From positions 8,818,552-8,882,551 of the forward strand of contig NC_054391.1 of assembly GCF_001625195.1 (NCBI RefSeq): a stretch of DNA of 64,000 bases. Reading direction: 5' to 3'. How positions within the stretch are numbered: position 1 is the stretch's first letter; each line of letters starts with the position of its first letter. Positions 52,854 through 54,809 of this stretch are shown here, one piece after another. The notes under the pieces are model-generated. The model worked only from the letters and a program-made list of their open reading frames with translations, searched no databases and was not told the DNA's origin. The stretch is from Drechmeria coniospora (lineage: Eukaryota > Ascomycota > Sordariomycetes > Hypocreales > Ophiocordycipitaceae). The translations under genes and the position numbers were made by a program.

Positions 52854-53606
52854 ATGAAGATTTTTTCCGCTGCCGCCGTCCTCTTGGGCCTCGCTGCTGT
52901 AGGATCGGCCGCTCCCGCACCGGAGCCATGGTGCACTCGCCCCGGAAGTGGTTGCTGGAAGGTCAAGAGAAGTGTTGAGGTATTTTCCAGGGCCATACGA
53001 TCGTCTGGCGGCCTCGAGGCTCGCAGTCCGGAAGCCGACTTCAGTAATGCGCCTGGTGGAGTGGCGTACGCGGTGAAGCGCGCCGTCGACCACCTTGCCA
53101 ACGTCCTGGCCCTTTCATCCGACAACCCCGAGCAGTACTACAAGGAATTGGGGCTCGAAAAGGAGTTTGAACCGGACAGCGGCGGCAAAGTCAAGCGAGA
53201 GGCTCTGCCAAACCCTTGGTGCACCCGTCCCGGAAGCGGATGCTGGAAGAAACGCGATGCGACTGCGGTCCAGAAGCGGAGCTGTGCGGGTGCTGCCTCG
53301 GTCTGCTGGGAAGACGACGGCGAGACATCCACCGAGGAGAAGAGGTGGTGCACTCGTCCCGGGTCTGGGTGCTGGAAGGCGAAGCGCGCGGCCGATGCCG
53401 TCCTCGAGGCCATTGGTGACGACGACAACGAAGCCCTCGAGGCGGCCTTTGATCCCGCCGCTTCGCACAGCCACAGCGGTGCCAGAAAACGCGAGGCTAG
53501 CCCAGAGCCGTGGTGCACTCGTCCCGGCAGCGGCTGCTGGAAGGTGAAGCGGGACCTTGAAGCCATCCGGGCAGCTGCCCGCAGCATCTCGGCCGCTCTG
53601 GAGTAG
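52854..53606 (+). CDS. Alpha-factor-type mating pheromone precursor
   Basis: 250 aa from the ATG at 52854, single exon. Signal peptide MKIFSAAAVLLGLAAVGSA. Four exact copies of the decapeptide WCTRPGSGCW lie at residues 26-35, 122-131, 165-174 and 220-229 (52929, 53217, 53346, 53511), each followed by K(V/A)KR or KKR, i.e. Kex2-type sites. A fifth, decayed unit SCAGAASVCW follows KR at residues 143-152. Preceding spacers APAPEP, EALPNP and EASPEP split wholly into X-Ala/X-Pro dipeptides, the substrates of Ste13-type dipeptidyl aminopeptidases. The W-C-x6-C-W layout is that of Fusarium/Trichoderma-type alpha pheromones (Ppg1 family), recognised by a Ste2-type GPCR (Pre2). Long acidic or helical spacers of 20-86 residues separate the units. 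Expected to be used by cells of the partner mating type or in homothallic development. Confidence 0.93.
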   Translation: MKIFSAAAVLLGLAAVGSAAPAPEPWCTRPGSGCWKVKRSVEVFSRAIRSSGGLEARSPEADFSNAPGGVAYAVKRAVDHLANVLALSSDNPEQYYKELGLEKEFEPDSGGKVKREALPNPWCTRPGSGCWKKRDATAVQKRSCAGAASVCWEDDGETSTEEKRWCTRPGSGCWKAKRAADAVLEAIGDDDNEALEAAFDPAASHSHSGARKREASPEPWCTRPGSGCWKVKRDLEAIRAAARSISAALE

Positions 53607-54809
53607 CCAACGGCGGCCACCCCTTTTTTTCTCTTACCCAGGCTTGAAATTTCGTATAGTTTGCGCCTTCTTTTGATCACTTTCAGGCAATACGCATGAT
53701 TCGAGATCATGTCCGGTGTTGCTTTTCATTGCCCGCTCTCGCGTCAGTCGCTTCCGTCCCGACTCGATGGGAACCGACGCGCCCTACCCCGTTTCCTCCC
53801 TGCTCAAGCAGTTTCGCCCATTTTTGATTCACGCACAAAAGACTCGAAAAAAGACTTGAAAAAAGACTCGAAAAAAGACTCGAAAGAAATTGAAATGACA
53901 AACGAGAAACTGGACGCGAGAAGTGCCGATCACTCCGACAAGACGACTGCAGACGACTGATGAGGACGGCACCACCGCATTCGTCCATGTTCGCTTCTTT
54001 GCCCGACTACTTCACCACCAGTCGCGGCCTTGACTTTGGTTCATCACACGGCGGGCCGGGTCGGTAGAGTCGAAGCCTGCCTTCTTGTTGTCCCGTTTTT
54101 TTATCTTTCGACTTGACCCGTGGCTCCTTGGAGGAGCGGACCATGGGTGGTAGTCGCTGCCGCGCAGACACATGGACAGCCGGAATCGAATCGGTGGGGA
54201 AGGATTGGAATGACTGTTGTACATTACAGCTTCATAACTATTAGCTCCCAGCCGAATGTCATCGCTTGCCATGAGACCCCATGACTGTGCAACGGGGCCA
54301 TGATGCACGCTCATGCGGCATCTGCTTGTGAAAGCATGCACGAGATGGCTTGGGTGTCGATGACTTCAACCCGTCGCAGGCAATGGCCCGTCCTTGGCAA
54401 AGGTGCATCCATCTCGAAGTCTGGGCAGACAGACATGGGCATGGAACCGGAAATACAATGAGGATATCTAGTCGGAACTTCAATTGCTAGTCCTGGCGTG
54501 GCATGTACGTTCAATCATTGCGATCCTTCCCACGAGACCTGTCAGTCCGGAAAGCACCGCACCCAAGATTGTTCGCGTTGATTCTTCTCCATCCTGAGTC
54601 CTTGTCTGAGCCGGCAGTCGTGGGCGCTGCGCAAGGCGCGCCTCGGACGGCGAATTAGCAAGAACGTGGACGTGGAATTTGCGTTGTTCAATAATAATGA
54701 AGAAGAAGAAGGAAAAGGAAAGGAACGTCGTGAAATTTCGGTTTTGGCATTTTGGGAAGTGGAGCAGCGTGGGTCGAATGTGTTGGTGCCTGAGGATACG
54801 ACATGGGTA
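53607..54809. other. Intergenic, 12-bp repeat, no gene seen
   Basis: Contains four units of GACTCGAAAAAA (53841-53888; one GACTTGAAAAAA, the last GACTCGAAAGAA). A small open frame across it is low complexity. No other feature. Confidence 0.6.
53841..53888. repeat. 12-bp tandem repeat GACTCGAAAAAA, four units
   Basis: Four head-to-tail 12-bp units with two variants, about 240 bp downstream of the pheromone stop codon. Confidence 0.9.

What the first reader, a model, noticed from the sequence alone, without database searches (positions are those of the whole stretch)
52854..53606. Pheromone precursor with four amino-acid-identical, synonymously diverged decapeptides
The four WCTRPGSGCW copies have no amino-acid difference, yet differ at third positions (GGA/GGG/GGC for Gly, CGC/CGT for Arg) and in one copy use TCT instead of AGY for Ser, which takes more than one base change. 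So identity is not due to recent DNA duplication but to selection on the peptide. The peptide itself (TRPGSG loop between the Cys) differs from the loops of known Fusarium, Trichoderma and Neurospora pheromones and may define a lineage-specific recognition code.
Basis: partly seen in the sequence, partly recalled or inferred. Interest (0 to 1): 0.75.

Follow-up and report, generated by a model that had tools for sequence, protein, structure and literature searches.

The report
Drechmeria alpha-pheromone precursor with unusual turn
The gene is a standard fungal mating-pheromone precursor of the nematode-killing fungus Drechmeria coniospora, and its four identical ten-residue signals carry a Gly-Ser-Gly turn where most relatives have Gly-Gln, which offers a natural test of a residue pair described as essential.

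Summary
An intronless 250-aa ORF (52854-53606, +) carries four identical WCTRPGSGCW cores whose DNA differs at silent sites; Ser is TCT in copy 3, AGY elsewhere. The genome matches Drechmeria coniospora ARSEF 6962. The ORF is a single-copy alpha-type pheromone precursor (PPG1/CCG-4 kind), alignable along its length with Hypocreales precursors, with Kex2 and Ste13-type sites; Ste2, Ste3 and MAT1-1-1 genes are present. The loop differs from WCTRPGQPCW and WCTRPGQSCW only at positions 7-8. The interesting point is Gln7 to Ser: Gly6-Gln7 is called essential in F. oxysporum; GQ occupies 123 of 183 cores counted, GS only these four. Ant-infecting Ophiocordyceps also have Ser7. New member of a known kind; activity and receptor match untested.

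The parts
52854..53606 (+). alpha-pheromone precursor ORF, 250 aa, found once in the genome
   Evidence: homologous over most of its length to proteins whose sources name them clock-controlled pheromone ccg-4
52854..52910 (+). signal peptide MKIFSAAAVLLGLAAVGSA (cut after Ala19 proposed by inspection)
   Evidence: hydrophobic, mean Kyte-Doolittle 2.09 over residues 3-19; no signal-peptide program was run
52929..52958 (+). core 1 WCTRPGSGCW, preceded by AP-AP-EP, followed by KVKR
53217..53246 (+). core 2 WCTRPGSGCW, preceded by KR-EA-LP-NP, followed by KKR
53280..53309 (+). degenerate fifth core SCAGAASVCW directly after KR; inside the Cys/Trp frame no more like the four cores in DNA than permuted codons are
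   Evidence: codon-permutation control (0.12-0.71 of permutations reach the observed match)
53346..53375 (+). core 3 WCTRPGSGCW (Ser codon TCT), directly after KR, followed by KAKR
53511..53540 (+). core 4 WCTRPGSGCW, preceded by KR-EA-SP-EP, followed by KVKR

Best explanation
This is the alpha-type mating pheromone precursor of Drechmeria coniospora (a MAT1-1 strain). The protein enters the secretory pathway, Kex2 cuts after Lys-Arg, a Ste13-type dipeptidyl peptidase strips the X-Ala/X-Pro dipeptides (AP-AP-EP, EA-LP-NP, EA-SP-EP), and carboxypeptidase trims the tails, so that all four sites give the same decapeptide WCTRPGSGCW, which acts on the Ste2 receptor. The repeats were homogenised to the Gly-Ser-Gly form in the past and have since been kept identical by selection on the peptide while their silent sites drifted. 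Shown here: the ORF, its orthology, the identical cores, the likeness within precursors, and a Ste2 gene in the genome. Inferred: cleavage, secretion, exact C-terminus, receptor binding, use in mating or as an autocrine signal, and the homogenisation event.
For: The framework outside the cores aligns along the length with Hypocreales precursors: P0002 F. zealandicum E 9.2e-78, P0004 Dactylonectria 1.3e-75, P0023 Cordyceps militaris (named clock-controlled pheromone ccg-4 precursor) 2.6e-20. Three of four cores are preceded, back to the proposed cut site, by exactly three X-Ala/X-Pro dipeptides, and core 3 directly by KR. Own genome: STE2 E 6.5e-77 without stops, STE3, MATalpha. A P_proprotein match (positions 1-58 of 86, with one TGA inside, perhaps an intron) lies beside reading frames that look like a Kex2-type protease by inspection; three DPPIV_N places could include Ste13, but that family is broad and also rings in 5 of 14 control genomes. 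The precursor is found once. One identical sequence is held on two contigs, one of 11.68 Mb, which is none of this genome's three large contigs and too large for the rest, so another assembly encodes the same protein. Concert. Purifying selection. Ste2 Arg89, aligned with Arg84, which PMC12582325 places against Trp10, is Arg in all 18 aligned rows.
Against: No transcript or peptide data were available. Position 7 lacks the Gln described as essential in F. oxysporum (PMC7289986, PMC12582325), although the test quoted there was D-Ala at Gly6-Gln7, not Ser at 7. No sexual cycle of this fungus has been observed (PMC4792172; PMC4859500). The 1000 bases upstream hold none of TGAAACA, TGAAAC and ACAAAGGGA. 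No Pfam or NCBIfam model reaches its cut-off. The second Ste2 contact named in PMC12582325, Arg187, could not be placed: the aligned F. solani and D. coniospora residues are Ala and Pro. The homogenisation step rests on protein comparison; no DNA of relatives was available.
Confidence: 0.9

Rival explanations
1. The four slots acquired Ser7-Gly8 separately under selection by a changed receptor, without homogenisation of the DNA. The TCT against AGY Ser codons would mark two origins of Ser7.
For: AGY and TCT are two base changes apart. Of 66 Ste2 columns fixed in at least 15 of 16 other species, D. coniospora departs at three, P116S, L274M and S278A, all in extracellular loop 1 or the outer part of TM7.
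Against: It needs Gln to Ser and Ser/Pro to Gly in four slots with no mixed intermediate left, while within-precursor likeness is general in the 22 precursors compared. The receptor zone was drawn after the three sites were seen; 17 of 66 columns lie in it, so about 0.015 by chance. Pyricularia also departs at P116 and one Ophiocordyceps at S278.
Confidence: 0.2
2. The peptide works mainly as an autocrine or quorum signal of asexual growth through Ste2, and the mating role is lost.
For: No sexual cycle observed (PMC4792172 passage); alpha-pheromone of F. oxysporum controls germination and chemotropism outside sex (PMC7289986 passages).
Against: MAT1-1 and MAT1-2 isolates both exist (PMC10512298 section 21), Ste2 and Ste3 match nearly their whole profiles without stops, and the cores remain under constraint. 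The two roles are not exclusive.
Confidence: 0.3
3. A Kex2-processed repeat protein of another kind (effector or ribosomal peptide) that only resembles a pheromone.
For: Kex2-processed repeat proteins of several kinds occur in fungi (PMC6339444 passages), and the core breaks the GQ rule.
Against: Orthology of the whole framework to annotated pheromone precursors, single copy, a Ste2 gene, the Ste13-type dipeptides.
Confidence: 0.04

Closest known systems
Alpha-type pheromone precursors of Hypocreales (PPG1 / ccg-4), e.g. P0002 Fusarium zealandicum, P0004 Dactylonectria, P0023 Cordyceps militaris
   Same: Hydrophobic N-terminus (by eye), Kex2 and Ste13-type sites, WCxxxGxxCW cores, conserved inter-core framework with slots 1-4 in the same places (slot 4 of C. 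militaris holds another sequence)
   Different: Position 7-8 is Ser-Gly in all four cores where these have Gln-Ser, Gln-Pro or once Glu-Pro; four intact cores where these three have three to seven
Ant-infecting Ophiocordyceps precursors P0031 and P0032
   Same: Same framework; Ser at position 7 (21 NS and 3 LS of 24 cores counted)
   Different: Position 6 is Asn or Leu, position 10 is mostly not Trp; slots 3 and 4 hold other sequences
F. oxysporum alpha-pheromone with its Gly6-Gln7 turn (PMC7289986 passages; PMC12582325 passage and section 6)
   Same: Decapeptide with Trp1, Cys2, Gly6, Cys9, Trp10
   Different: Ser7 instead of Gln7, and other loop residues

Membership tests
Ascomycete alpha-type pheromone precursor (PPG1/CCG-4) | N-terminal secretion signal | tested here: inconclusive
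   Hydrophobic N-terminus, judged by inspection; no dedicated predictor was run
Ascomycete alpha-type pheromone precursor (PPG1/CCG-4) | Several copies of a short core flanked by Kex2 sites | tested here: met
   Four identical cores; KR ends 3-4 residues after each; KR (cores 2-4) or the proposed signal cleavage (core 1) precedes
Ascomycete alpha-type pheromone precursor (PPG1/CCG-4) | Ste13-type X-Ala/X-Pro dipeptides after the cut site | tested here: met
   AP-AP-EP, EA-LP-NP, EA-SP-EP before cores 1, 2, 4; core 3 needs none
Ascomycete alpha-type pheromone precursor (PPG1/CCG-4) | Core with two Cys, terminal Trp and central Gly (consensus in PMC3068285, printed there as WCXXGXXCW) | tested here: met
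   WCTRPGSGCW, four of four; judged as WCxxxGxxCW, the ten-residue form of relatives, since the printed consensus has nine letters
Ascomycete alpha-type pheromone precursor (PPG1/CCG-4) | Gly6-Gln7 turn (usual, not defining: the published consensus fixes only the central Gly) | tested here: not met
   Gly6-Ser7; GQ is the commonest dipeptide in 24 of 36 precursors compared, one further a tie
Ascomycete alpha-type pheromone precursor (PPG1/CCG-4) | Homology of the precursor framework to known members | tested here: met
Ascomycete alpha-type pheromone precursor (PPG1/CCG-4) | Ste2-type receptor in the species | tested here: met
   415-aa product with one intron
Ascomycete alpha-type pheromone precursor (PPG1/CCG-4) | Secreted mature peptide activates Ste2 | not testable with these tools
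   needs mass spectrometry and a receptor assay

The most novel reading that the evidence does not exclude
In Drechmeria and Ophiocordyceps the turn glutamine of the Sordariomycete alpha-pheromone has been replaced by Ser or Thr, with matching changes in the outer face of Ste2 (in D. coniospora P116S in loop 1, L274M and S278A in TM7), so that D. coniospora holds a pheromone-receptor pair that works through a Gly-Ser-Gly turn and is partly orthogonal to the GQ-type pairs.
Probability: 0.25. Interest if true: 0.6.

Novelty: new member of a known kind. Interest (0 to 1): 0.4.

Why it matters
Gly6-Gln7 has been treated as indispensable: D-Ala at these two residues abolishes activity of the F. oxysporum pheromone (PMC7289986), and an 8,000-member library was built with GQ held fixed as essential (PMC12582325). 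A natural, fully homogenised Gly-Ser-Gly pheromone in a species with an intact Ste2 gene lets that rule be tested directly in an existing yeast assay. [quoted passage not shown]

Tried and rejected
Chance repetition: rejected by orthology and codon evidence. Recent tandem duplication: rejected, silent sites differ at 0.47-0.67 per site. The degenerate fifth core as a decayed WCTRPGSGCW copy: tested against permuted codons and not supported; it may instead correspond to SCARIGQGCW of P0009, which was not tested. Promoter words: none of TGAAACA, TGAAAC, ACAAAGGGA within 1000 bases upstream, uninformative. Framework tree of 22 of the 36 precursors: D. coniospora stands on one side of a weak split (79/90) with Ophiocordyceps, RAO-2017, Hirsutella, Purpureocillium and two unnamed metagenome proteins, but 11 of 19 inner branches are open, no starred set holds it, and by path length its nearest rows are Fusarium nematophilum and Dactylonectria. 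So whether Ser7 is shared by descent with Ophiocordyceps is unresolved; Purpureocillium keeps GQ and Hirsutella has GF and GH, which counts against a family-wide change to Ser. Receptor comparison used 17 of the 69 Ste2 relatives; P0037, same species, was dropped before counting. D. coniospora: 3 of 3 departures in the outer zone; the 16 others: 20 of 74 (my sums); the zone was set after the sites were seen.

Pfam, NCBIfam and PDB searches with the precursor gave nothing above a cut-off. The three protein searches scored only about 8,000 candidates each, so they are not exhaustive; no Tolypocladium precursor appeared, although its Ste2 did. The exact decapeptide is in none of the papers of the PMC library. 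Paper search for other core strings returned 3,162 papers; the 25 listed held only the string CMRPG, mostly in grant numbers as far as their abstracts show, and no pheromone paper. Main texts on D. coniospora: pheromone occurs 0 times in PMC4859500, PMC7500977 and PMC10512298 and 4 times in PMC4792172, where the passages shown and section 12 concern signalling and receptors; supplements were not seen. PMC6265332 and PMC7329392 held nothing on this peptide in the words searched. Core counts required W, F, I or Y before the first Cys and six residues between the Cys, so cores of other form (most of P0025, with seven between) were dropped.

Full report
What is there. The ORF at 52854-53606 (+) encodes 250 residues without an intron. 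It starts with a hydrophobic leader and carries four identical WCTRPGSGCW cores. A DNA pattern for the core's first six residues matches four places on the forward strand and none on the reverse in the 32.8-Mb genome, all four in this gene; the pattern read backwards matches once on each strand. A protein search finds the gene once. A fifth, degenerate unit, SCAGAASVCW directly after KR, sits between copies 2 and 3; it keeps the Cys-x6-Cys-Trp spacing, but its DNA is no more like the cores than permuted codons are.

Whose genome. The three long contigs are 12,542,233, 10,204,147 and 9,751,215 bases, matching the 12.5, 10.2 and 9.8 Mb chromosomes of Drechmeria coniospora ARSEF 6962 (PMC4792172, passages). 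The best relative of its Ste2 is a D. coniospora protein at 96% identity. A MATalpha gene is present, as reported for this strain. The identical precursor is also on an 11,679,135-base contig, which is none of the three and larger than all remaining contigs of this genome together. The Swedish assemblies are described with chromosomes of 8.5, 11.6 and 11.6 Mb (PMC7500977, section 4 part 1), and PMC10512298 (section 21) reports MAT1-2-1 in the Swedish strains, so the peptide is probably the same in an isolate of the other mating type. That last step is inference.

What it is. phmmer gives 28 other proteins at E <= 1, 26 of them at 3.1e-12 or better, and a profile search adds seven more (P0030-P0036); several are named clock-controlled pheromone ccg-4. 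Both searches scored a capped set of candidates. The alignments show four slots with conserved flanks: slot 1 before the block KVKR...SSGGLxAR, slot 2 before KKR/KAKR, slot 3 between EEKR/EDKR and KAKRAAEAVLEAI, slot 4 before KxKRDLxA. Processing signs agree: core 1 is preceded by AP-AP-EP after a likely signal cleavage, core 2 by KR-EA-LP-NP, core 4 by KR-EA-SP-EP, core 3 by KR alone. So one N-terminus, Trp1, is expected at every site. The tails (KVKR, KKR, KAKR) must be trimmed; the exact C-terminus is not shown. Ste2, Ste3 and MATalpha genes are in the same genome. For Kex2 there is a partial profile match with one TGA inside, perhaps an intron, next to frames that look like the protease by inspection. 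Three DPPIV_N places exist, but which, if any, is Ste13 was not determined, and that family also rings in 5 of 14 control genomes.

Selection or duplication. Between copies 3-6 of 30 bases differ, pS is 0.47-0.67 and no residue differs. That is strong purifying selection, and it speaks against recent duplication or recent conversion across the whole core. But selection alone does not explain a shared novelty. In 22 aligned precursors (of 36 found, this one included) the cores of one protein are more alike (0.698, 101 pairs) than cores in the same slot of different species (0.485, 711 pairs); shuffling cores among species within slots gives 0.484 with s.d. 0.014, and 0 of 5000 shuffles reach the observed value. 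The window's four cores are identical, and 0.51 on average, at most 0.75, like the same slots elsewhere (Cys columns left out). The likely history is an older homogenisation to GSG, then silent drift under constraint. The TCT against AGY split is either a double change in copy 3 or a second origin of Ser7; the data do not decide. A study of Ceratocystidaceae discusses concerted against birth-and-death evolution for such repeats and favours the latter there (PMC13037118, passages).

How unusual is the peptide. Two of six loop residues separate it from WCTRPGQPCW (C. militaris) and WCTRPGQSCW (F. zealandicum first core). Over 183 cores in 36 precursors, positions 6-7 are GQ in 123; GS occurs only in these four; Ser7 also occurs in all 24 cores counted in two ant-infecting Ophiocordyceps (21 NS, 3 LS), and some other precursors have mostly GA (6 of 7), GN (6 of 6) or GE (5 of 6). 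So the loss of Gln7 is not unique to this gene. In F. oxysporum the turn at Gly6-Gln7 was found crucial by D-Ala substitution (PMC7289986, passages; the underlying 2017 study was not read), and a screen of 8,000 variants kept both residues fixed (PMC12582325, section 6). D-Ala disturbs the backbone, so those results do not show that Ser at 7 is inactive. The window peptide lies outside that library.

Receptor hints. D. coniospora Ste2 (415 aa, one intron) keeps Arg89, aligned with Arg84, the residue that molecular dynamics in PMC12582325 place against Trp10 (numbering taken from the aligned F. solani protein). The other contact named there, Arg187, could not be placed by this numbering (Ala in F. 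solani, Pro192 in D. coniospora). Of 66 columns fixed in at least 15 of 16 other species it departs at three, P116S, L274M and S278A, in loop 1 and the outer part of TM7 (placed by alignment to yeast Ste2, and by inspection). Pyricularia also departs at P116, and O. camponoti-rufipedis, itself a Ser7 species, at S278. In the 16 others 20 of 74 such departures fall in the same zone (my sum over). This fits co-change with the ligand, but the zone was chosen afterwards and three sites are few.

Verdict.

Noticed in passing
G000:C1:4894034-4894984 (-), L008/L009: A STE3-family receptor gene matches the profile in two pieces without stops (164.5 and 68.7 bits, positions 2-292 of 292), although PMC4792172 (section 12) states that a PreA orthologue is absent.
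   Followed up: partly
L005 / P0037: The public D. coniospora Ste2 model RJ55_01526 lacks 15 residues (WVPKAVLITNIVSIS) that are open in frame in this genome and aligned with sequence in the relatives; probably a wrongly predicted intron.
   Followed up: partly
window 54503-54693 (-): Rfam match to Afu_182, an A. fumigatus small RNA family, 78.5 bits (cut-off 65), about 900 bases downstream of the pheromone gene.
   Followed up: no
P0016, P0022, P0025, P0031, P0032, P0033: A second core-like element, CxAEGGACW or CxEEGGACW followed by xAKRA, recurs in these precursors, in slot 3 of the aligned ones; by eye it looks more conserved between them than their pheromone cores. A possible second peptide.
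   Followed up: partly
window 53280-53309: Degenerate fifth core SCAGAASVCW after KR; SCA is shared with SCARIGQGCW in P0009, so it may be an old, separate unit.
   Followed up: partly
P0020: A clear pheromone precursor of Purpureocillium lavendulum is named a Zn(2)-Cys(6) cluster protein in its source record.
   Followed up: no
window 53840-53889: Short tandem run of GACTCGAAAAAA-like units downstream of the gene, seen in the sequence.
   Followed up: no
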